From Echinometra lucunter (lineage: Eukaryota; Echinodermata; Echinoidea; Camarodonta; Echinometridae): a stretch of DNA of 64,000 nt. A model generated the notes under the pieces. It was not told the DNA's origin. It did not search any database and saw only the letters and a list, made by a program, of their open reading frames with translations. A program made the translations under genes and the position numbers. Of this stretch, positions 2,637-62,273 are shown piece after piece (position 1 is the first letter of the stretch; each line of letters opens with the position of its first letter). The DNA is taken from the NCBI GenBank assembly GCA_029962745.1, contig CM057162.1, forward strand, positions 9,798,408 through 9,862,407, read 5' to 3'.

Positions 2637-4109
2637 TTTTTTGGGAAGCATTTTGGATCTTGGAAAAAAATTTGACATTTAGGTGTGTCAAGGCCAACAG
2701 GTAATTAAATGGGTATTATCAATTTAGCGTACAGTGTACTGTGGTCTTCATGTGACAGTTACATGTACTAGTATTGCTTTATCAGCTTGCATTAAAGTTT
2801 CAGAAGAGTTTCAACATTCATGAGAATTTTTTACCTTTTGGCACTCTTTAAAAACAAACTAAGGAAATAGATGATTTCTGCAGGAACTTCAAGTGGATGG
2901 TATACAGATTTGTTCTTTTTTGTTGGGAAGAAAGAACATTGATTGCATTAAAAGTGAAAGTTTGTGAACACATTGAAAACATAGATTACAAGATAATAGC
3001 ATTTGCATGTGCATGCGATGCTATATGCTTTGGAAGTTTTTCACGCAAAGTATTCTTTTTTTTTTTTAATTCTTGGTGTGTGAAGGACACATTGCCAGCA
3101 GAGGATAATTTGCAGTAAGTCTATACATCAGCAATCTTTTCTTCTTTGAATGTACACTGTACATATTCAGTTTTCTGCTCTTTGGAATAATTGGAAGATT
3201 TTCTTTAGAATAAAGGATGCTTTTTGGAATCATACCGGAGTTTCTTTAAGAATAGTGACATACTGCCATTCTTTTGTGCTTTTTTATGCGTTCTTTAAAG
3301 CATATGGGCTTCTGACAAAATATTGCAGGTCTTAAGTGGACAATTTCTTGGAACATTTGGAATTAAGATCATATGTGTATGTAGTTACGTGCACCTACTA
3401 AGAAGTTTGTAACATCGAAAATGAGCAAAGACAGCTGTAATAGAACTTTGCAGGCCTATGCCTTTGTTAAATGTGTAATGGAGCTACGTGTACATGACTT
3501 TTATGGATCTCTCAGCACTGTCATGAATGCCAGGGTATGCTGTCTGTCTTGTCATTCACAGAGCACTACAGGGGCTTTGTTTTGAGGTTCCCTGTGTGAT
3601 ATACGGGTTTCTGTATTAGTGAGCTTTGTTTGCTTCATCGTATTCTTGATGGAAATCTTCTAGGATGTCAGCATTCCTATCGTTTGCTGAGAGTCAGGAA
3701 GACTATAACTACTGGAACTTGAAGTAATATGCCTTTGGTGAATTACATGTACATACATTTACCCCATGCAGCATTGAGTTTGAGATAACTTGGGCTACAT
3801 GTATGGACAATTTGTGTGAAACTGAAATCAAATTGTATTCATCTGGTAAAAAAGATGATAATGCTATCAGCAGAAGATGTTAAACTATTGTGCAAAAAAG
3901 TTGATTTTTCTTGGAAAATGAAATTCACTTCCTTTTTAAAATTGACTTCTTGCTTGTTTTGTTGGTTTGTTTGGGTTTTTTGTTTTGTGGGGAGGATATT
4001 GGATTGAGATTGTAATGGCTATCAGTTGCTTTTTAGAACATGTGCTGTGAAATGATAGTGGTAAAGAAAATGTATTAACCTTTTGTTCTGCAAGCACATG
4101 GCAGAACTC

Positions 4110-4129
4110 CCATCATCACCATCATCTCT

Positions 4130-4162
<33 letters not shown>

Positions 4163-4539
4163 CTCATCATCGTCACCACCACCATCATCATCGTCATTAC
4201 CATCATCATCATCGTCATCACCATCATCGTCATCACCATCATCATCGTCGTCACCACCACCATCATCATCGTCATTACCATCATCATCATCATCACCATC
4301 ATCATCATCATCGTCATCATCATCATCGTCATCACCATCATCATCATCATCATCACCACCACCACCATCATCGTCATCACCACCACCATCATCGTCATCG
4401 TCATCACCATCATCGTCATCACCATCATCATCGTCGTCACCACCACCATCATCATCGTCATTACCATCATCATCATCATCACCATCATCATCATCATCGT
4501 CATCATCATCATCGTCATCACCATCATCATCATCATCAT

Positions 4540-4571
<32 letters not shown>

Positions 4572-4614
4572 CCACCATCATCATCATCATCATCATCACC
4601 ATCATCGTCATCAC
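4110..4614. repeat. Compound CAT/CAC/CGT trinucleotide array
   Basis: About 505 bases of ATC, ACC and GTC triplets. The pattern itself repeats: the GTCGTCACC landmark recurs after 186 bases (4247 and 4433) with matching neighbours, so a segment was duplicated. Long Ser/Pro and Met/Val frames on the two strands are consequences of the triplet repeat. Confidence 0.95.
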
Positions 4615-5036
4615 CTTCTCACTAGGGAGAGATACATGTACATGTAGAACTCAGAAGATGCTCGAGCAAATAACTGCTGTCTGAGTAAATAGAAAAACAG
4701 TCTTGACTGAACATACCTTAACCCACCGAAACCCTGAAATACTCTCTGTATGATGTCTCCTTCATGTATAACCTGTTCAGACTACAAGAAAGTCCAGTGC
4801 AATATTTGCGTAAAGAACCTTCATGTAGCTGAAGGGGTTTCACACTTTAATGTATGTTTGTATTTTTTAAAAATATAGTGTGAAGACCTTATACAGTAGG
4901 TAGATTGGGCATGGAGTTACCCATGTTTGTAACTCCATGGTTTGGGAGACAGCAACTAAAACTGTATGGTTTTATTCAGGTTTTGTCGAGGTCAGTGTGA
5001 GAGCCTACATACACTGTAGGTACCTGGTATGTGATA

Positions 5037-25860: not shown

Positions 25861-26276
25861 TTAATTCGTGACAGAGGTCCACATTTTGTGGTTGGCCTAA
25901 CACCTTTTGATGCAAAGTCCTAAAAATCATACCAAATACATGAGCAGAAAGAGCAAAAAAATCTACACAAACTGTGCAAATTTTCGTTGCGTCAATATTC
26001 TTTGTTTGATGCTGAAAATGTTTTAAAGGAAAATAAGCATTAAAATCCTTGAATTGGCAATGTGATAGAAAGTGTAAAATCACCGTTTTCCCCTGCAAAT
26101 TGGCAACTTTTTGACTTCTCATCATAATTTCTGTCAATTTATATTCATTTCAGATACATGACGTTTTATAAAGAAAATGTAGAAATAAAATAAAAATAAT
26201 GGTGTTGCCAATTTGAAGAATAAAAGATGATCAAATTACGGTAGGCTTTAAATAATTCCTGCCACGAATGGGTTAA
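25861..26276 (+). mobile_element. piggyBac-type MITE, family A, copy 2
   Basis: Same sequence as the copy at 849, with TTAA at 25861-25864 and 26273-26276. The left end lacks the CCCA of the consensus; the right end (CACGAATGGGTTAA) is intact. It sits seven bases downstream of microexon 1. Confidence 0.85.
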
Positions 26277-27378
26277 CCATTCAGAATTCGTAGTCCTCTG
26301 TCAAACTGATGTCTTCTAAAAATGTACAAACTGCATAATTTCATGATAGGTCCTTCAGAAGATATGTGTGAGAATCACTCTCTGCAAAATGTTGGAATGT
26401 GGGTGAAATTAAATCTGTTCCAAACCACATCCAGCTGTTCCTGCTGGTAGGGATATCGTTGGGTCATGGTCAAGTTAACCACATAGAAACAGGGAATCTA
26501 ATCAGTTTCTATCCTCACAAATATGAAAGTAATTTGTTACTTCTTCGCTGGTTTTGATATTTGCCTGATGTTCCAACTTTATTTTATCCATGTACATGTA
26601 CATTTTAGTACTTTTTCTAAGGTTTAATTTTTCTAAATTCTTCCTGCAGTTCTGATATTTATTAAATTTTTGTGACATCTCTCTATGTTACTCTATTCTT
26701 GTTATCTTCCCAAGTCCTAGTTTCATGTCCTCTCCTCCTTTCTTTCTTTCTTGGGCCTGCCTCAAATTTTGATTCATTTCTTACTTTTGTTAAATAAATA
26801 TCATTTTTGGTACACCCAGAGAATGAGTTCCAGATATCTTTTCTGCTGCAATTTTTTTCTAAAGTCTCTTAAGTGCTTACATAAATCTCATTTTAAGTAA
26901 AGAAGCAGTTGTTTCTTTTGCAATGGCATTGACCAAATTGCATTCTTGCTCGGAGTGGAAAATATCAGATAGGCATGGAACCTCTTCCTCTGTCGACAAG
27001 GGGGGAATGAATTTTACGTGGCCTATAAGCTATATCTACATGCCACTTCTGCAAACTGCTGTTAGGGAGGGTACATTGAGGAAATGCAACTAATTAATCG
27101 TGGGAGGTTGAAGCAAAGCTGTATCTTTTGGAGGATTAACTTAATTGCCTGTTTCAACCTTAAAGCATTCCCTCTATCCAATCCTTGAAGCTATGAAATA
27201 TCCTCCTTCTTACTTTACCCATCTTAGCAGCTGTTTTATATACAGCCTTTTTAATGGATGGAATGAAAGATTTTAATTTTGATGTAATAACTGTCTTTAT
27301 AACTGCAACTAGGTGTGACTGTAATTATAACCGTTGCTTAAGACTAACAGGTTCCCAGGACACTTGCCCCCCCAGCCC

Positions 27379-35697: not shown

Positions 35698-36455
35698 ATG
35701 ATAATAATATTCTGGATTCATATAGCGCATTTCTGATGTCACTAGGTGCTTTACAGAAATACTGTTACCCCGGTCACTGAATTCAGGCTTGCCCGCACAC
35801 AATGTATACACCTTCTCCACTTCGTGGGGAGCATTCCAGCCAGGCATCTATTGCAGATACTCACAATGCTAAACAAACCACAACAACTTTTGCATTGTAC
35901 CGGGTACCCACTTAACCCATTCGTGACATAGGTCCACATTTTGTGGTTTGGCCTGATATCTTTTGATGCAAAGCCCTAAAAATCATACCAAATACATGAG
36001 CAGAAAAAGCAAAGAATTCTACACAAACTGTGCCCATTTTGGTTGCGTCAATATTCCTTGTTTGATGCTGAAAATGTTTTAAAGGAAAATAAGCATTAAA
36101 ATCCTTAAATTGGTAATGTGATAGAAGGTTTAAAATCACCGTTTTCCCCTGCAAATTGGCAACTTTTTGACTTCTCATCATAATTTCTGTCAATTTATAT
36201 TCATTTCAGATACATGACATTTTATAAGAAAAATGTAGCAATAAAATAAAAGTGTTGATGTTGCCAATTTGAAGAATAAAAGCTGATCAAATTAGGCTTT
36301 AAATAATTCCTGTCACGAATGGGTAAACACCTAGGTGGAGAGTGGCGAATGTAGATTCATATTCTTGACAGAGGGCATTAGTGCCGTGGTGGAACTCGAA
36401 CTCGGACCAAGAGATCCACAGTCCAATGACGTCTCCACTAGACCACAACACTTGT
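35698..36455 (-). mobile_element. tRNA-derived SINE, split by a MITE
   Basis: Read on the - strand, the head has an A-box-like TGGTCTAGTGGA (36435-36446) and a B-box-like GGTCCGAGTTCGAGTTCC, spaced as in a tRNA gene. The body continues past the family A MITE at 35912-36327 into GGTACCCGG and ends AGCACCTAGTGAC...GCGCTATATGAATCC with an ATT-rich tail near 35700. The tail resembles that of the LINE fragment at 37040-37093. Boundaries are approximate; no target duplication was identified. Confidence 0.75.
35912..36327 (+). mobile_element. piggyBac-type MITE, family A, copy 3, inside a SINE
   Basis: Left end TTAACCCATTCGTGACA is the full consensus; right end TGTCACGAATGGGTAAA has one change in the target site. 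Removing the element rejoins the two halves of an antisense tRNA-derived SINE across a TTAA-like site, so the MITE is the younger insertion. Confidence 0.88.
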
Positions 36456-38039: not shown

Positions 38040-38124
38040 ATACCATGATGGGTCTAGTCTCTTTCCCAAGCTCAACGACTGTGCACACTTCCACTACGAT
38101 CATGTCGAGCTGGGATCAGTGCAG
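38040..38124 (+). CDS. ARHGAP32: Exon: start of the PX domain
   Basis: The acceptor is ggtttgactttacag and the donor CAG|gtttgt, which departs from consensus at +3 to +5. After a split Ser it encodes 28 residues including FPKLNDCAHFHYDHVELGS. The CAHFHY motif and the following V-E-x-G-x-x-Q match the first strand of the PX domain in ARHGAP32 and ARHGAP33 closely. It ends in phase 0. Confidence 0.96.
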
Positions 38125-39074: not shown

Positions 39075-39314
39075 ATATCTATGCATGAGGAGTCAGAGGA
39101 CCGTACCTCTTTGATGGAGCAGAACGGGGGTGCAACCGACCTCTTGGACTGTCCCTTCACCCTCCGCATGCTGAGCCAAGGCAAGGTCTGGCTCCTCAAG
39201 AGGTGCTATGAGGACTTCAGGGTCCTTGACAAACAGCTTCACAAATGTATCTACGACAGGAGGTTCAGCCAGCTGGTGGAATTACCCAAAGGAGAGACCC
39301 TCACTGGCAGAGAG
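39075..39314 (+). CDS. ARHGAP32: Exon: core of the PX phosphoinositide-binding domain
   Basis: The acceptor is ctcactctccacag. Exactly 80 codons run to GAG|gtgcac, a weak donor; the open frame continues in the intron to a stop at 39424-39426, so intron retention would give a short tail. The exon encodes residues 150-229 of the model. KRCYEDFRVLDKQL carries the PX signature (basic, aromatic, F), and CIYDRRFSQLVELPKG corresponds to the strand and loop region. Most PX domains have a PPK or proline-rich loop here; this one keeps only LPKG, as the ARHGAP32/33 family does. An acidic, Gly-rich insert (MEQNGGATDLLD) precedes the core. Confidence 0.97.
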
Positions 39315-40310: not shown

Positions 40311-40403
40311 GCTGTTAGAGCAATGCTGGCCCACTATGTCTCTCGATTCTCACAGATCGCTGGAGATATGATCAACTGTGGTCCGGTTCTCAACTGGCTT
40401 GAG
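40311..40403 (+). CDS. ARHGAP32: Exon: C-terminal helices of the PX domain
   Basis: The acceptor is ttgtataccag and the donor GAG|gtaaac, with 31 codons in phase 0 at both ends. The peptide begins AVRAMLAHYVSRFSQIAGD and ends INCGPVLNWLE. The NCGP(V/A)L-W-E ending is diagnostic of ARHGAP32/33 PX domains. The downstream intron starts with several CAAA repeats. Confidence 0.96.
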
Positions 40404-41782
40404 GTAAACAAACAAACAAACAAATAACCAAACAGACTAACAAAGAAACAAGTAAGCATCATTAATTTAAAGATGGAAGCGTGCCAACTTATAGTTAGCA
40501 TGAAAGAAAAGCTGCTTTAAACATTTGATTTTATTTATTAAAGAGGAAATCATCAAGGCTCTAACTAGAATGAAATATATTGAGCACAAGCAAAACCAAA
40601 TATTATATAATTACCTTGCATGATCTTATTTATTTAAGGACTGTGGTAGGTGCGGTGAAATAGAAACTAAAAGCATAAAGTAGAAAGTGTTTAGCACTTT
40701 CATAAATAGGCATTATTGTTGGGATTTTATTTTTGTAGTAGTAAAATCGGGGGAATTCATGGGTTAGAAGAAAGACTTAACTGTAGTATTTTCAGTAGTC
40801 CAAGTATATTTGACCTTTCATATTCCATTTTTGTCATTGTAGTTGCTAACTTTAGGTATTATTAGAATTGGAACACATAGAGTTTGCTTAGTAAATTCAT
40901 ATTCAGTGGGCTGAGTAGTGTAGTGCTTTTAATGTTTTTTTGGTGTTGTTGTTTATTATTTTTTTTATAATGCTTGTAGATTAATTAGCTACAGTATATG
41001 TTTACATGGACACTTGGAAGATTTGAAGTCCGTAATGTGCATTACGATAAACTGAAAGTAGTTGACTTAGAGGGATTACTTTACATCCCTTTTCTCTATG
41101 AAATATTTGATGCACTTTGACTAACATGATTTTTTTAATGATATATGAGCCATACTTAAAAGTCACACACAATATTCTTATACTCAAATTTTGTAGCAGA
41201 TCTTAGATCATATTTCTGCGAGTTTGATTTTGATAAATGATTAATGTAACTCTGTCTTTCTCTTTCAATTACTCCACATGCCTGACCTATGATCAATTCT
41301 AACCTTGCCCATGCCGGGTGGCTATTACCCGTGTTTCACCCCCACCCCTGTACCCCACATGCCTCTACTGAACACTACCCATGTCATTATCCCCTTCCAC
41401 CTGTAACCCCCTCCTTCTGTTTCATTTCCCCCCTCCCCGTACCACTGTACCCTTGTGTAATCCCATGCCACACTGTGTTCATTCTAACACCATCCTAACC
41501 GATGGCTGTTTCCCCCCCCCCCCCCCCCCCCGGTACCTCCGTGTGCTCCCTATTACTTACCCTATTACTGGTAACCGCTGCCAACCTACCAACCCCCTTC
41601 TGTTTAACCCCTTCCCTGTACCCAATACTCCCCCTTATTACACATACTCCATATGATTACCCCTTCCACCTAACCCTATCCCCACCTGTTATCATCCTAT
41701 ATATACCCCTCTTGTGTACCTTTCTGCACCCCATCTGCCTGCCCGTGTATCACCGTGTATCACTATGTTTTGCCTGTTTCAG
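40404..41782 (+). other. ARHGAP32: Intron 7 (1.4 kb)
   Basis: The first 880 bases are ordinary AT-rich intron. From about 41289 the sequence turns strongly C-rich and G-poor up to the acceptor of microexon 2. Confidence 0.6.
41289..41780 (+). promoter_or_regulatory. C-rich, G-poor tract upstream of microexon 2
   Basis: About 490 bases dominated by CCCC, CCCT and ACC motifs, including a run of 19 C at 41513-41531, ending at the acceptor of microexon 2. Possible binding region for poly(C)- or pyrimidine-binding splicing factors; this role is inference. It contrasts sharply with the AT-rich intron on both sides. Confidence 0.4.
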
Positions 41783-41809
41783 ATTGATAACATTGGTTGT
41801 CACGTTGAG
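41783..41809 (+). CDS. ARHGAP32: 27-nt candidate microexon 2, partial copy of the next exon
   Basis: The acceptor ttttgcctgtttcag and the donor GAG|gtaaag are both strong. The nine codons read IDNIGCHVE in phase 0, so inclusion or skipping both keep frame between ...NWLE and LDNHGNHVV.... The 27 bases match the first 27 of the exon at 57617 at 18 positions, including an 8-base and a 7-base block. Vertebrate paralogues have a single such segment. It would extend the PX-SH3 linker by a second copy of the DN-G-HV peptide. It could be a regulated cassette, or a decaying relic of an exon duplication. Confidence 0.6.
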
Positions 41810-42340
41810 GTAAAGAAACATTGCGTTTCATTTTTTTTTTTCTTTTTTTTTTTTGTGTCCATGTATGATTTTACTGAAGCATTCATCTGTTACCCTTTCC
41901 AAGCATACATTTGAACCTGCTAACTTCTGCACACATAGATTCATAGCCTTTCTCCATCACAGACTTTCACATAACTGTGTAAATAATTGTTGTCTCTCCA
42001 TGGAGCATATTGATTTACGGTTTTTCAGAAACATATCTGTCCTATCTAAGCATCTTGATATCTTAAATTTTCGTTTAGGTGTTGGAAGTTTTGATTCTCA
42101 TGTTGTGTACTTGAATCACAGTGGAAAATAATATAATATCCACAGGTCATCTGCCCTCTCTTTCATGAAATATTCAAAGCATTTATTTAATCAAAATGAA
42201 TTTCTATCATTCTGTAGCTTTCCTCCTTTTTTCCATTTATTACAATCAGGGAAGTGATGCATAGTTTAATAATTGTTATTATTGATTATTTTCTGTCATC
42301 TACACTCCCATAAAATCTTCCAATCATAATAAATACACTT

Positions 42341-43222
42341 TTTATGCCTCCGCCCACCGTAGGTGGTTGCCGGAGGCATTATGTTTTCGGGTCGTCCGTC
42401 CGTCCGTCCGTCCGTCCCGTTTTCGTTCTCGCGATAACTTAAGAACCGTTTGACAGATCAACTTCAAACTTGGCTCATGTATGCATATGGGAGGGACAAT
42501 GATCTGATTAGATTTTGGAGTTTCAAGGTCAAAGGTCAAGGTCATAGAGGTAATAATACACATAAAAATGGCTCGTTCTCGCGATAACTTAAGAACCGTT
42601 TGACAGATCAACCTCAAACTTGGCTCATGTATGCATATGGAAGGGACAATGATCTGATTAGATTTTGGGGTCACAAGGTCAAAGGTCAAAGGTCATAGAG
42701 GTCATTATGTACATAGAAATGGTTCGTTGTCACCATAACTCAACAACCATTTGACCGATCAACCTCAAACTTGGCACAGGTATGCATATGGGAGGGACAA
42801 TGTTCTGATTAGATTTTGGAGTCTCAAGGTCAAAGGTCAAGGTCATAGAGGTAATAATACACATAAAAATGGCTCGTTCTCGCGATAACTTAAGAACCAT
42901 TTGACAGATTGGCTTCAAACTTGGCTCATGTATGCACATGGAAGGGACGATGATCTGATTAGATTTGGGGGTCACAAGGTCAAAGGTCAAAGGTCATAGA
43001 GGTCATTATGTACATAGAAATGGTTCGTTTTCACCATAACTCAACAACCATTTGACCGATCAACCTCAAACTTGGCACAGGTATGCATATGGGAGGGACA
43101 CTGATCTGATTAGATTTTGGAGTCTCAAGGTCAAAGGTCAAGGTCAAAAATGTCATTGTATAAATGAAAATAAAGCAACATGAAGTGCCATTATTTCTGA
43201 TCTGGTAATGCGGAGGCATAAA
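42341..43222. repeat. Inverted-ended repeat with five tandem AGGTCA units
   Basis: TTTATGCCTCCGC at 42341-42353 and its perfect reverse complement at 43210-43222 bound 882 bases. Inside are (GTCC)n at 42392-42418 and five tandem units of about 150 bases, each with a TTTGAC(A/C)GAT...CAAACTTGGC block and a cluster of AGGTCA half-sites. Alternate units are more alike, giving a 300-base higher-order period. A palindrome TCGACCACGCGTGGTCGA follows at 43224-43241. The type is common in sea urchin and other marine deuterostome sequence as far as I know. Confidence 0.8.
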
Positions 43223-44150
43223 GTTCGACCACGCGTGGTCGAAGATTCATCTAGTTATTACGCTGTTTCTCTTATCCTTCTTCTTGCGATTACAGTTCAG
43301 TAAAGTTGTGCACAGTTTTATCATCAATTCTTTTGGCCTTTGCAACGCAATTATCATATTTTCATTCTCATCGATAAAGGGATAATCAGGGCCGCCTCTT
43401 GGAAATGAAGTGCCTTCCTCTTTTATGAAAGGAGGTTGTAGCATGGCCTGTTCCTATCGATGTAACTTCTTTTCCGTTCTCATACATAAAGAGATTTTTG
43501 TGAGGAATTTGAAATTCAAAGTAATTCCTGATCCTCTAAAAGCATGGTACCTCTCTGTTACACTGGAAATTTTCATCAGTCATTTCAACTTGCTTTTCGA
43601 AAAAAAAATGTGGCAAAGATCTCCTATTGCTACTTTGACCATAATATCATTGGTGTCATACATGATGGGTGTATAGGCAGACAAACTTGTTGCAAAAGGG
43701 GTTGCAATGGTACATCCATCATTATCTGTTAAATGAAGATAGATATTAAATAAATATATAGATCCAGTAATCCATATCTATTAGTATCTATGAATCCAAT
43801 ATGAATATGGCATAAATATATCATTCTATAAATCCAACTTTATGGATAAATTGTAACCTGTTATCATCATCATCATCATTGTTAAACATCCATTTTCCCG
43901 ACACTGAGGGTTTGGACATTTCCTTTGTGGCCATTTTTTCCAAACTTTCTTTTATTCAGCATCCGCCTGGGTGAGGCAGGATACTCTCAGATCTTCCTCC
44001 TTCCAATCTATGCTTGCATTGAATTGATATCAGTTATAGGGAATGGTTATGATATATATAACATGATATTACTATTGAAAATTCTGAATGCAGAAACAAG
44101 TATTAGCCAGTTCTGTATGGAATATGACAGCAGCATGACCTAAATGATGC

Positions 44151-44563
44151 TTAACCTATTTGTCACAGAAATTATTTAAAGCCTAATTTGATCAGCTTTT
44201 GTTCTTCAAATTGGCAACACCAACATTTTTATTTCATTGCTACATTCTTCTTATAAAACGTCATGTATCTGAAATCAATGTAAATTGACAGAAATTATGA
44301 TGAGAAGTCAAAAAGTTGCCAATTTGCAGGGAAATATGGTGATTTTTAACTTTCTATCACATTGCCAATTTAAGGATTTTAATGCTTATTTTCCTCTTAA
44401 AAATTTTCAGCATCAAACAACAAATATTGACAACCAAAATGCGTACAGTTGTGTAGAATTTTTTGCTCTTTCAGCTCATGTATTTGGTATGATTTTTAGG
44501 GCTTTGCATCAAAAGATATTAGGCCAAACCACAAAATGTGGACTTCTGTCACGAATGGGTTGA
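44151..44563 (-). mobile_element. piggyBac-type MITE, family A, inverted copy
   Basis: Reverse complement of the other copies: starts TTAACCTATTTGTCACAG and ends TGTCACGAATGGGTTGA. It gives an open frame of 92 codons that is only the repeat read through. Confidence 0.85.
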
Positions 44564-45088: not shown

Positions 45089-45219
45089 CTGAAATGAGGA
45101 AAATGTGTTTTGAATATCAGGAAAGTAGTTATCCTTAGCTTCTTGGCTCCAGTAGTCTGCACAGTTTATTTGATGGTTTTGAATTGTGTCGGCCTCTACC
45201 TTTTTGCATAATATTGGTT

Positions 45220-45637
45220 TTAACCCATTCGTGACAGAGGGTCCACATTATGTGGTTTGGTTTAATAACTTTTGATGCAAAGCCCTAAAAATCATACCAA
45301 ATACATGAGCAGAAAGAGCAAAAGATTCTACACAAACTGTGCCCATTTTGGTTGCATCAATATTCATTGTTTAATGTTGAAAATTTTTCAAAGGAAAATA
45401 AGCATTAAAATCCTTAAATTGGCAATGCAATGGAAATTTTAAAATCACCATTTTCCCCTGCAAATTGGCACCTTTTTGAATTCTCTTCATACTTTTTGCC
45501 AATTTATATTTATTTCAGATACATGACTTTTTATTTTAAAAATGTAGCAACAAAAGAAAACTTTTGGTGTTGCCAATTTGAAGAATAAAAGTTGATCAAA
45601 TTAGGCTTTAAAATAAATCCTGTCACAAATGGGTTAA
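45220..45637 (+). mobile_element. piggyBac-type MITE, family A, copy 5
   Basis: TTAACCCATTCGTGACAG to TGTCACAAATGGGTTAA, about 418 bases. Its right end abuts the left arm of a foldback element that starts at 45639. Confidence 0.87.
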
Positions 45638-45638
45638 T

Positions 45639-46330
45639 GTAGATGAGGTTTAAGGTTCACCATGTGGTAAGTTCTGAAAGGACTGTGAGTTCAAGAGAGC
45701 AGAGAAAGTTGAGAGGGAGGAGAAATGGAAAGGCAAGATAGAATGAGAGAGAGAGAAGAGAGCATCTTTCTTGAGATAGGGTGAAGCAGTAACAAGGACT
45801 GTAAACCAGTTAACCCATAGCAGTACAGAGCTTTCTTAAGGTCTAAATTAATCATCTTCAATCCTCAAATTGGCAATACAAATTATTTTTTCCATGTTTA
45901 AATAGCTTGAAAAAATAAATATGGATATAACATAAACCCAAATGACATACATGTACAATTGTAAAATTTAATCAGAAATTGCCAATTTGAACACAGAAAT
46001 AGTGATTATATATCATTCACTGCATTGCCAATTTAAAGAGTTTAATGATTAGTTACACTTAAACTGCTCTAACTCGAGAACGCCGCGCCATACAGTGATG
46101 GGAATGGGCTCAAATTCATCAGTGCATTTTTCTCTTTCTGCTCATGTATGATATGTACTGCCCAACATTCTGGACCAACAGATAGTGCAAAAACATCTCC
46201 TAAAGGTGACATTGTACCTCTATGGGTTAATGAGAAGGTGATGATGAGAGAAGGCTCTAACCAGATCCTACCCTCTCCACTCACAGTCCTTTCAGAACTT
46301 ATCACATGGTGAACCGTAAACCTCATCTAC
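45639..46330. mobile_element. Foldback element holding a nested family B MITE
   Basis: Arms 45639-45690 and 46279-46330 are 52-base inverted repeats with 2 mismatches (core GTTCACCATGTG). The family B MITE at 45810-46230 lies between them. Confidence 0.75.
45810..46230 (+). mobile_element. piggyBac-type MITE, family B, copy 1
   Basis: A second family of similar size with TTAA ends: TTAACCCATAGCAGTAC at the left and GTACCTCTATGGGTTAA at the right. Internally it shares AATTGGCAA motifs with family A but not the overall sequence. It lies between the arms of a foldback element. Confidence 0.82.
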
Positions 46331-57616: not shown

Positions 57617-57739
57617 CTTGATAACCATGGCAACCACGTTGTAGCCAGCGAGGAGTCGGCCATCAACATACCAGCCGTGGCGGCAGCACACGTCATCAAG
57701 CGGTACGCCGCGCAAGCACCAGACGAGATCTCATTAGAG
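57617..57739 (+). CDS. ARHGAP32: Exon: PX-SH3 linker and start of the SH3 domain
   Basis: The acceptor is ccatgacaacag and the donor GAG|gtaagc, with 41 codons in phase 0. It starts LDNHGNHVVASEESAIN and continues IPAVAAAHVIKRYAAQAPDE. The VIKRYxAQAPDExSLE segment takes the place of the ALYDY-type opening of an SH3 domain and is nearly invariant in ARHGAP32/33. The exon is distinctly GC-richer than the introns around it. Confidence 0.97.
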
Positions 57740-58940: not shown

Positions 58941-59247
58941 CTGGGGGTGTTTCATAAAGACTAAGATTGACTCAAATCGCTCTTAACTATGGCAGGCCCT
59001 TCGTGCTACCGTTTGCTGTCACCATCGGTCTCTCAAGGGACACATAAATCAATGTCACAAATTTGAAAAATTTACATTTTTTGTTTTCTTCATCAATGAA
59101 CTATTAAAAATTGTTAATTCCGCAGATTTGTGACCATGATTTGCAAATCCTTTGAGAAATCTGAAGTGAAAGAAAACAATGGCATAAACGGCCAGCCATA
59201 GTTAGTGCGATTTTAGTCAATCTTAGTTTTTGTGAAACACCCCACTG
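58941..59247. mobile_element. Foldback MITE, GTTTCAT family, 307 bp
   Basis: Left arm CTGGGGGTGTTTCATAAAGA with ACTAAGATTGACTC following; right arm ends AACTAAGATTGACTA-like reverse and GTGAAACACCCCACTGG. Arms are about 55 bases with scattered mismatches. Confidence 0.72.
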
Positions 59248-60460
59248 GTATTTAGTACACTCCATTATTGGATTTCAGATGTGAAACTAAGTATGATGTC
59301 GAATAAATCAATTCAATGAATTGTGTAGAAATGATACCACTTGTAATGCAAATGAATAAGGGACTTTAAGAGAAAAAAAATTCTTAGAGGTATCAAGGTC
59401 TGCTTGAAGCAGGTGTTGAAGACTTGATTCAATCCCAGGTTTCCATGGCAACGTAATGTATCTTGGCTGCCACGAATGTATTGAATGTTTAACACTCCTG
59501 CACCACTGTTAGTCATTCTGGCGAGCGAAGGATTCGGCATTGAAATCGCAGCTCCTTGGCGTTAGTCACGTTCACCTAGCCCCTTCTTTCAAATACTGAA
59601 TTGCCGGCTGTATAGCTGTATATATTACATACTTATCTGACTGCATTTGGTGCTTCGTGAATTTTGGCATACAGTGTACACACTGTTGGATCTATTTTCA
59701 TGGAGTATAAGTAGCAAGGACTTAATTTCATGTTCAAAAGAATTATCATTAACTGCTTGTGATATACATCATTGTATGGATTTTGAATTATTAAAAGGAT
59801 ACATAATGCTGTAAGTAGATTAAATGATTTGATATTCTTCATTGTATCATTGGTTTTTTTTTTCATTTGTTTTAGATCAAATTCATAGAATATTAATTTT
59901 TGGATTAAAAACACATGTCAGCAGAAGTATTAGAGGCAATACATTATACCAGTAGTAATCGAGAATTCATGCATATTACTTCACTTGCCAAAAATCAAGT
60001 GAGAAGAAATTATACCATTTAGTCTGTTCTTCTTCTCATTGGTAACTACTGTGTATTTTAGAAGAACTGTCAAATGTTATGGAGTATCCTACAGGTATGA
60101 ATGACTTCTAAATTTCACCTTAAGAAAGCTTAATTCATTCCCTACTCTTTAAGTGGAAATATGCTCACAACACAATATACCTCACTTGGGCCTTGATTTC
60201 TTGATTTTTACATAGTATTTCAAAGGGTGCACAATTTCCATAAAATGGTATGCCACCAATTCATGGTAGTAGGTCACGTTTTTCTAATGTTTCTCTTTTA
60301 TCATTCTGATGAATTATGGTTGAGAATTAAGATTTAATTCACTCTAGTGCTTCAAAATACAGTCACAATCCTTTACACAGTAATTGACTGCGTACCGGTA
60401 TATAAAAATTACCCAATTAAATAATGGTGTCATTTCCTTGTTTGTCAATCAGATATGATC

Positions 60461-60725
60461 GATCCTCCCCTCCCCCTTTTCTCTGTCTGTCTGTCTCTCC
60501 CTCCCTCCCTCTCTCTCTTTCTCTTCCCTTTCCTCTCTATTTCTATCCTCTCCCCACTCTCTCTTCTCTTCTCTCTCTCTCTTTCTCTTTTCTTTTTTCA
60601 CCTTCTCTTTCACTCTTTATTTCTTCTTCACCTCTCACATTATTGTTCTTTCCCATGCTTCTCTCTCTTCTCTCTCTCTCTGCTCTCTCTCTCTTTCTCT
60701 CTTTCTTTCTCTCTCTCCTTTCATA
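60461..60725. repeat. CT-rich low-complexity tract
   Basis: About 265 bases of CTCTCT/TTCC sequence, giving Ser/Leu-rich frames that are not coding. Confidence 0.92.
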
Positions 60726-61267
60726 CAAATTCTCCCCCCTTCCTTCATCTCCACCCTTCCTTCATTGTCTTCTTCTTCTTCTTCTTTGTTCATCATTATC
60801 TACATCTCTCTCAGTTCCTTACTCTTTCTAATGTTTCTGTGTAAGCTTCTGTTTACAAAACTGTGATTGAAAAGTAAACATAGTAGTGGTTTCATTACAT
60901 TAGCATCTAATCATTTATGACGCATACATGGGTGTACTTTTGTCTCTGTTTGCTGCGCTCATTTATTATATTCTCTATGATACATGAGTAATACATCATG
61001 ACTAATGGGTTGTATTGGAATATGAATCATTTGAGTTCAGCTTTTTTATTTTGGTTCAGGGCAACACCTTCCTATTTCTAAACAAAACTAAACCTGAATG
61101 ATACGGTAGGAAGCACAACTCTTTCAGTATAACAATAACCACCGTAGGCAACACATCTGATATCAAGTGCTCCTGGAAATTTATTATTTTAATTCAAGCA
61201 AATTGGATATCCTTTGCATTCAGCAGTGGTAAATATTAGATACTTAAGATTTTCAGGTTTAAGTGGT

Positions 61268-61685
61268 TTAATCCATAGAGGTACAGTGTCTCCTTAGGAG
61301 ACGTTTTTGCAGTATCTGTTGGTCCAGAATGCTGAGCAGTACATATTATACATGAGCAGAAAGAGAAAAATTCACTGAAAAATTTGAGCCCATTCCCAAC
61401 ACTGTATGGTGTGGTGTTCTCGATTTAGAGCAGTTTGATTGTAACTAATCATTAAACTCTTTAAATTGGCAACGTAGTGAATAATATATACCACTATTTC
61501 CGTGTTCAAATTGGCAATTTCTGATAAAATTTTACAATCATAATTCATTTTGGTTCATGTTATATCCATATTTATTTTTTTCAAACTATGTAAGCGTGGA
61601 AAAAAAATTAAGTGTTGTTGCCAATTTTTAGGATTGAAGATGATTAATTTAGACCTCCAGAAAACTCTGTACTGCTGTGGGTTAA
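61268..61685 (-). mobile_element. piggyBac-type MITE, family B, inverted copy
   Basis: TTAATCCATAGAGGTACAG at the left and GTACTGCTGTGGGTTAA at the right. The sequence is the reverse complement of 45810-46230 with scattered changes, including the small palindrome CTCCTTAGGAG. Confidence 0.82.
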
Positions 61686-62104: not shown

Positions 62105-62273
62105 GTGGGAGACATGATCTCTGTCATCGACATGCCTCCTCCCGAGGACACGTCGTGGTGGCGCGGCAAGAATAAGTTTGACGTGGGTTTCTTCCCACGC
62201 CAGTGCGTGGAGATCATCAGTGAGAAGTTGCCCCTGGCAGTGGCTGAGAGGGTACCTAAGGGTCCAAAACCTG
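62105..62273 (+). CDS. ARHGAP32: Exon: main body of the SH3 domain
   Basis: The acceptor is ttcttgatcatcag and the donor CCTG|gtaaaa. There are 56 codons plus one base (phase 1). It opens VGDMISVIDMPPPEDTSWW and includes WWRGKNKFDVGFFPRQCVEI. The paired Trp residues, the Gly-Phe-Phe-Pro turn and the final C-V-E-I strand are the SH3 landmarks. The exon ends in VPKGPKPG, where the vertebrate proteins lead into the region before the RhoGAP domain. The following exon lies outside the window. Confidence 0.97.

What the first reader, a model, noticed from the sequence alone, without database searches (positions are those of the whole stretch)
41783..41809. 27-nt microexon that copies the start of the next exon, in frame
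Seen: an AG...GT-bounded 27-nt segment reads IDNIGCHVE, and the next exon 15.8 kb away starts LDNHGNHVV. They match at 18 of 27 bases. Both ends are phase 0, so the proteins with and without it are both in frame. Known: vertebrate ARHGAP32/33 have one such segment between PX and SH3. Inferred: a micro-duplication has become (or is decaying from) a cassette exon that changes PX-SH3 spacing.
Basis: partly seen in the sequence, partly recalled or inferred. Interest (0 to 1): 0.75.

Follow-up and report, generated by a model that had tools for sequence, protein, structure and literature searches.

The report
Ancient duplicated microexon in urchin RhoGAP
A sea-urchin signalling gene carries a real 27-letter exon that is a copy of the start of the next exon; starfish, sea-cucumber and acorn-worm relatives have a matching nine-residue insert at the same place, so it looks like an ancient, possibly optional protein segment, and it is preceded by an unusually long stretch that looks regulatory.

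Summary
Confirmed. Window 41783-41809 is a 27-nt phase-0 exon (IDNIGCHVE) in an echinoid ARHGAP32/33-like gene, between exons C (40311-40403) and D (57617-57739). It matches the start of D at 18/27 bases, the only such match in 64 kb. A 9-residue counterpart stands at the same junction in 9 of 16 listed ambulacrarian entries (all 5 echinoid ones, 2 asteroids, a holothuroid, a hemichordate), is missing from 6 and cannot be judged in 1. None of the other listed proteins has it; hydrozoans have one LDNHGNHL copy. So it is an old partial exon duplication kept in frame, not recent and not decaying. New here: its acceptor follows 558 bases without AG, the longest AG-free run of the window, with full-consensus branch points only at -285 and beyond and UGC at -12, as in eMIC/Srrm-dependent neural microexons and distant-branch-point exons. 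Inferred, not shown: alternative and neuronal use, distant branch point, effect on PX-SH3 geometry. Orthologous DNA and RNA-seq could not be examined. Most likely a new, unusually old member of the known class of neural cassette microexons.

The parts
41783..41809 (+). 27-nt phase-0 microexon, IDNIGCHVE
   Evidence: 8 of 9 residues the same in Lytechinus and S. purpuratus proteins P0003, P0004
41223..41780 (+). 558-nt AG exclusion zone ending at the microexon acceptor; 71% pyrimidine; AG 0 observed vs 11.1 expected, GA 8 vs 11.1
   Evidence: tandem repeats in it are only a 20-nt poly-C and a 10-bp unit x2.1; no other copy in the window except poly-C
41297..41303 (+). TTCTAAC, candidate distant branch point (A at -481)
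   Evidence: consensus match only
41482..41499 (+). TTCTAAC and TCCTAAC, candidate distant branch points (A at -296 and -285)
   Evidence: consensus match only
41771..41773 (+). UGC motif at -12 to -10 of the microexon acceptor
   Evidence: weak alone: exons A and D also have UGC within 100 nt, at -22 and -45
41810..41854 (+). 5' splice site gtaaag followed by a U-rich stretch (T run 41831-41854)
40311..40403 (+). upstream exon C, end of the PX region (...GPVLNWLE), ends GAG|gtaaac
57617..57739 (+). downstream exon D (LDNHGNHVV...), template of the duplicate; holds the start of the SH3 match
39075..39314 (+). exon B, PX region
   Evidence: homology
38040..38124 (+). exon A
   Evidence: homology
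62105..62273 (+). exon E, SH3

Best explanation
The 27-nt segment is a genuine, ancient cassette microexon of an ambulacrarian ARHGAP32/33-like RhoGAP. In an ancestor, the acceptor and first nine codons of the exon that opens the SH3 side were duplicated into the preceding intron and closed by a new 5' splice site; the result stayed nine residues long in all 9 relatives seen. Inclusion puts a second xDNxGxxxx segment directly after the last PX helix and lengthens the stretch to the SH3 side by nine residues, most likely retuning how PX and SH3 sit against each other and so membrane-dependent GAP activity. Its use is probably regulated in neurons: a 558-nt AG-free zone would lead any branch point within it to this acceptor, and a UGC beside the acceptor fits activation by the eMIC domain of Srrm234. 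Shown: exon anatomy, presence in database proteins of several classes, phyletic pattern among listed proteins, the AG-free zone. Inferred: alternative use, a single duplication event, neuronal eMIC control, distant branch point, effect on the protein.
For: Sequence and chance controls. Include-form proteins: Lytechinus variegatus P0003 and S. purpuratus P0004 IDNIGCHIE, P0005 (unnamed) IDNIGCQIE on a 4856-base contig that holds 1381 codons and so is most easily read as spliced RNA, Diadema P0006 IDNNGFHIE, Asterias P0007 LDNHGHQLK, Acanthaster P0008 IDNHGHALK, Apostichopus P0011 IDKHGYQMK, Ptychodera P0014 MDSYGYHCQ, Lytechinus pictus P0123 IDNIGCHIE. In all 9 the ninth residue is E, K or Q, as expected if each is a phase-0 exon ending in an NAG codon before GT (inference). 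Skip form in Patiria, Amphiura, P0012, Antedon, Anneissia, Glandiceps. For nine rows (window included), 5 to 23 of 4982 9-mers score as well against the own D-start, in a pool that itself contains the D-starts and microexons of four species. AG zone: longest of all AG-free runs, with 3661 AGs on the + strand; the other five acceptors have 45-67 nt. [quoted passage not shown] exons with large AG zones are more often alternative (PMC1431707, passages).
Against: No RNA-seq and no orthologous DNA: neither alternative use in one species nor conservation of the AG zone was tested. All 5 echinoid entries include the segment, so no skip form is seen in the window's own group. UGC near an acceptor is common by chance. 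Branch points closer in cannot be excluded (CTAAC at about -110, TTAAC at about -176; degenerate sites were not scored, nor was splice-site strength). The expectation of 11.1 AGs assumes independent letters; the zone is TG- and CC-rich with a 20-nt poly-C. PMC1431707 (passages) estimates that only one-fifth to one-half of human AG zones of 100 nt or more mark distant branch points. Not all eMIC features fit: flanking introns here are long (fly eMIC exons have short ones) and UCUC is scarce (TCTC once, CTCT four times in the zone). Ptychodera shares three residues with its own D copy, so an independent duplication is possible. The structure models are poor overall (mean pLDDT 61 and 49) and weak at the junction (pLDDT 55 and 28 for residues 221-240 of P0011).
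Confidence: 0.63

Rival explanations
1. Real and conserved microexon, but constitutive or nearly so in echinoids, and the AG-free zone is a neutral C-rich accident.
For: All 5 echinoid entries listed carry the segment; the zone is CC-rich with a poly-C run.
Against: Skip-form proteins in 6 of 16 ambulacrarian entries; the longest AG-free run of the window ends exactly at this acceptor, and GA, GG and AA are near expectation while AG is zero.
Confidence: 0.2
2. Independent duplications: similar 9-residue exons arose separately in echinoderms and hemichordates.
For: Ptychodera MDSYGYHCQ shares 3 of 9 residues with its own D-start, and its scores to echinoderm microexons (12-24) are like its score to its own D-start (19). 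Both crinoid entries, the brittle star and Glandiceps lack the segment.
Against: Same length, same junction, E/K/Q at the end in all 9, and a sixth residue that is C, F, H or Y and never the N of exon D.
Confidence: 0.12
3. Main role is a truncated, PX-only isoform: the microexon begins a composite last exon that is read through into the intron.
For: Lytechinus pictus isoform X2 (P0123, 264 aa) ends NWLEIDNIGCHIE-VKKHCFLFLSKHSSDTTPCIH; the window also reads VKKHC before diverging, with a stop after 43 residues from the microexon start and the first AATAAA at 42328.
Against: The 8 other include-form entries continue into D; this is a single gene model of unknown support.
Confidence: 0.03
4. Pseudo-exon or recursive-splicing exon without a protein role.
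For: It sits in a 17.2-kb intron.
Against: It starts ATTGAT and D starts CTTGAT, so no 5' splice site is rebuilt at the junction; nine residues at this place recur across classes in predicted proteins.
Confidence: 0.02

Closest known systems
Neural microexons under Srrm3/4 or the eMIC domain (Srrm234)
   Same: 27 nt lies within the 3-27 nt class used in PMC12626424 (passages); in frame; in a relative of ARHGAP33, called a brain-enriched sorting nexin in PMC4742909 (start of abstract in listing); long AG zone and UGC (PMC8797185, section 10 read).
   Different: Neural regulation untested; long flanking introns, little UCUC; origin traceable to the next exon; present across ambulacrarian classes, whereas PMC8797185 (passages) says microexon conservation declines quickly outside vertebrates.
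Distant-branch-point exons with large AG exclusion zones
   Same: Long AG-free zone with branch-point consensus in its upstream part; PMC1431707 (passages) names zones of 381 nt (PTB exon 11) and 438 nt (nPTB) and counts 165 exons with 150 nt or more in a set of 67,334 human introns.
   Different: 558 nt, longer than any zone named in the passages read; branch point not mapped; an invertebrate microexon.
Tandem duplicated exons (FYN 7a/7b, U2AF1 Ab/3)
   Same: Neighbouring homologous exons whose 3' splice-site organisation differs (PMC5224494, passages; PMC9741552, passages).
   Different: Only the first 27 of 123 bases are copied, and both copies stand together in the 8 full include-form proteins, so insertion and not substitution.
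Vertebrate ARHGAP32 (PX-RICS) and ARHGAP33
   Same: Homologous PX-SH3 region, same junction (TWME in place of NWLE) and one IDNKGNHLL-type segment.
   Different: No second copy in any listed vertebrate protein.

Membership tests
ARHGAP32/33-like PX-SH3-RhoGAP | SH3 domain | tested here: met
   SH3_9 at 38.9 bits against a cut-off of 30 in the joined window product
ARHGAP32/33-like PX-SH3-RhoGAP | PX domain | tested here: inconclusive
   Pfam PX not reached by the window product, P0004 or P0014; reached by P0011 at 21.7 vs 21.6 bits; the region is homologous to annotated relatives
ARHGAP32/33-like PX-SH3-RhoGAP | RhoGAP domain | not testable with these tools
   Would lie beyond 64000; present in P0004, P0011, P0014
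Cassette microexon | Exon of 3-27 nt, in frame, with AG and GT borders | tested here: met
Cassette microexon | Included and skipped in transcripts of one species | tested here: inconclusive
   Include and skip forms seen only in different species; all 5 echinoid entries include it
eMIC/Srrm-dependent neural microexon | Long AG exclusion zone, UGC near the 3' splice site, CUAAY branch-point sequence | tested here: met
   558 nt; UGC at -12; CTAAC at about -110, -285, -296, -481; sequence match only
eMIC/Srrm-dependent neural microexon | UCUC-rich polypyrimidine tract | tested here: not met
   TCTC once and CTCT four times in 558 nt
eMIC/Srrm-dependent neural microexon | Neuron-enriched inclusion lost without eMIC | not testable with these tools
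   needs RNA
Distant-branch-point exon | Mapped branch point about 100 nt or more upstream | not testable with these tools
   needs lariat mapping
Recursive-splicing exon | Exon start rebuilds a 5' splice site | tested here: not met
   ATTGAT and CTTGAT starts
Mutually exclusive duplicated exons | Copies used one or the other | tested here: not met
   8 include-form proteins contain both copies; P0123 is truncated after the first

The most novel reading that the evidence does not exclude
A single partial-exon duplication before the split of echinoderms and hemichordates created a neural, eMIC-dependent microexon that has kept its nine-codon length ever since. It is governed by a branch point about 285-480 nt upstream, inside an AG exclusion zone longer than any named in the papers read here, and it inserts a second copy of a PX-capping turn to switch the PX-SH3 geometry of a Rho regulator.
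Probability: 0.32. Interest if true: 0.66.

Novelty: new member of a known kind. Interest (0 to 1): 0.5.

Why it matters
Microexons are studied mostly in vertebrates, and passages seen here (PMC8797185, PMC9741552) say that few or none are shared between flies and mammals and that conservation falls off fast outside vertebrates. This one recurs in several echinoderm classes and a hemichordate and still shows where it came from, so it is a rare case in which the birth of a microexon (a copied acceptor plus nine codons) can be read. The sequence before it makes a sharp prediction, a distant branch point, that one lariat assay can settle, and the two protein forms would be a simple test of whether nine residues between PX and SH3 change a Rho regulator.

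Tried and rejected
Recursive-splicing exon: no 5' splice site rebuilt at the exon start. Mutually exclusive pair: 8 include-form proteins carry both copies. Chance match. Repeat-derived AG zone: no tandem array over the zone and no second copy in the window beyond poly-C; repeats elsewhere in the genome could not be checked. Insert outside Ambulacraria: of the 240 listed proteins of searches (120 of 1302 and 120 of 194 hits are listed), 9 have the nine residues, 3 Prochilodus models (P0202, P0205, P0227) have other, unrelated inserts and 228 have none at the junction (P0032 was misread by the pattern and is settled). One search (113 proteins from only 151 candidates) added 99, of which 98 lack it and one, Saccoglossus P0341, lacks the upstream exons in its model. 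Solved-structure search by sequence: one chance hit, E 0.28. Rfam and tRNA scans of the window: nothing (the tRNA tool uses the bacterial code). Pfam on three other open frames: nothing. Literature: no held paper has ARHGAP32 or ARHGAP33 together with microexon; other searches are. That this exon's origin and AG zone are undescribed rests only on these searches of the held library; the exon itself is already in database protein models.

Full report
What is there. The window carries, on the + strand, six exons of an ARHGAP32/33-like gene: A 38040-38124, B 39075-39314, C 40311-40403, the 27-nt segment 41783-41809, D 57617-57739 and E 62105-62273. Their joined product is 94-95% identical over this region to proteins of the urchins Lytechinus variegatus and Strongylocentrotus purpuratus, 87% to Diadema, 70-75% to the starfish and sea-cucumber proteins, 64% to the hemichordate Ptychodera and 58% to amphioxus. 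I infer an echinoid; the species was not determined. Pfam sees SH3 in the window product and RhoGAP in the full-length relative P0004; the PX model is not reached by either.

The observation. The 27 bases are bounded by tttcag and gtaaag, lie in phase 0 and match the start of exon D at 18 of 27. No other 27-mer in 64 kb, either strand, reaches 18 except D itself; among 61 AG-27-GT segments of the intron it is the best, the next having 14. Shuffled D-starts reach 18 against any of the 61 in 6 of 20000. Similarity does not extend beyond the exon, apart from the CAG acceptor.

It is a used exon. Three protein searches returned 9 proteins with nine residues at exactly this junction: IDNIGCHIE in Lytechinus variegatus, L. 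pictus and S. purpuratus, IDNIGCQIE in P0005, IDNNGFHIE in Diadema setosum, LDNHGHQLK in Asterias rubens, IDNHGHALK in Acanthaster planci, IDKHGYQMK in Apostichopus japonicus, MDSYGYHCQ in the hemichordate Ptychodera flava. P0005 comes from a 4856-base contig that holds 1381 codons, while in the window six exons for about 245 residues spread over 24 kb, so that contig is most easily read as spliced RNA (inference). The others are named database entries, several marked as isoform predictions; their read support is unknown to me.

Phyletic pattern. Among 16 listed entries that are ambulacrarian by name, or by similarity for the unnamed P0005 and P0012, 9 carry the segment (all 5 echinoids among them), 6 (Patiria, Amphiura, P0012, Antedon, Anneissia, Glandiceps) do not, and Saccoglossus P0341 cannot be judged. 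Of all 240 listed proteins of searches, these 9 have it, 3 fish models have unrelated inserts and 228 have none at the junction. Of 99 new ones from one search, none of the 98 that can be judged has it. Hydrozoans have a single LDNHGNHL, so the single copy is likely ancestral and the microexon the derived copy. Limits: only 120 of 1302 hits of one search and 120 of 194 of one search are listed, one search scored 151 candidates, and clusters at 90% identity hide isoforms; 'absent' means absent from the listed representatives.

Origin. All 9 segments keep D at position 2 and G at 5, and 7 of 9 keep DN at 2-3. The sixth residue is C, F, H or Y and never N as in exon D, and the ninth is always E, K or Q, which is what an NAG codon before a GT splice site would give (inference). 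The Asterias copy scores closest to its own exon D (30; the other rows 13-27). The simplest history is one duplication of the acceptor plus nine codons of exon D in the ambulacrarian stem, but the hemichordate copy is diverged enough that a second event cannot be excluded, and both crinoid entries and the brittle star lack it.

Regulatory anatomy. The acceptor is preceded by 558 bases without AG, 41223-41780, the longest AG-free run on either strand of the window; the + strand has 3661 AGs, median gap 9, 99.9th percentile 268. The other five acceptors have 45-67. The next longest + strand runs, 519 at 4105-4623 and 360 at 60453-60812, are repetitive low-complexity stretches; this zone is not a tandem array. 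By letter composition 11.1 AGs are expected and none is found, while GA 8 (11.1 expected), GG 6 (6.2) and AA 18 (19.8) are near expectation; none of 20000 letter shuffles lacks AG. Full YNYTRAY branch-point matches in the zone lie at -550, -481, -296 and -285, none closer; CTAAC and TTAAC also lie at about -110 and -176. UGC lies at -12. Section 10 of PMC8797185 (read whole) gives long AG exclusion zones, UGC close to the acceptor and strong CUAAY branch points as marks of eMIC-dependent exons, an architecture it calls largely unique to them; it also lists UCUC-rich tracts and, in flies, short introns and very weak splice sites. The first two do not fit here; splice-site strength was not scored. 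PMC1431707 (passages) links large zones to distant branch points and alternative splicing, estimates that one-fifth to one-half of human zones of 100 nt or more mark distant branch points, and notes that some large zones seem unrelated to splicing.

Mechanism proposed. Skipping would be the default outside neurons, because the branch point is far and the exon very short; where an eMIC isoform of Srrm234 is made, the UGC-marked acceptor is activated and nine residues are inserted (inference from the papers above; no Srrm gene was looked at here). At the protein level the nine residues follow the last PX helix. In the skip-form model the matching DNKG turn closes PX (block pLDDT 88); in the include-form model the junction is poorly defined, and both models are poor overall. 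I suggest that the inserted turn takes the place of the original one at PX and frees the original as linker, loosening PX from SH3. The best fold match of the skip model, p40phox, is a PX-SH3 protein, which fits the layout but at TM below 0.25 says no more.

Extra form. Lytechinus pictus isoform X2 (P0123) ends by reading from the microexon into the intron, VKKHC..., and the window keeps VKKHC before diverging. A PX-only product from a composite last exon is possible.

Verdict. Real, in frame, old and present in database proteins; a well-preserved case of a microexon born by partial exon duplication, with an acceptor like those of regulated exons. Its kind is known. What seems new is this member, its depth and its AG-free zone, as far as searches of the held library show.

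Noticed in passing
834-1261, 25864-26280, 35912-36328, 44147-44561, 45206-45638: Interspersed repeat of about 415 bases in five copies, 87-94% identical, both orientations; three copies overlap a 96-110-aa open frame, two of which were tried in Pfam without a match.
   Followed up: partly
42422-43171: Tandem array of a 150-bp unit, 5 copies, with a 301-bp higher period at 94%, about 0.6 kb downstream of the microexon.
   Followed up: no
41783-42328: Possible composite terminal exon: read-through of the microexon gives VKKHC as in a Lytechinus pictus model; first AATAAA at 42328.
   Followed up: partly
58944-59243: Stretch of about 300 bases that matches its own reverse complement at about 75%, in the D-E intron.
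   Followed up: no
45810-46230 and 61268-61685: A second repeat pair of about 425 bases, inverted, 88% identical.
   Followed up: no
4105-4623: Long degenerate low-complexity array, open in several frames as poly-H, poly-S or poly-D.
   Followed up: no
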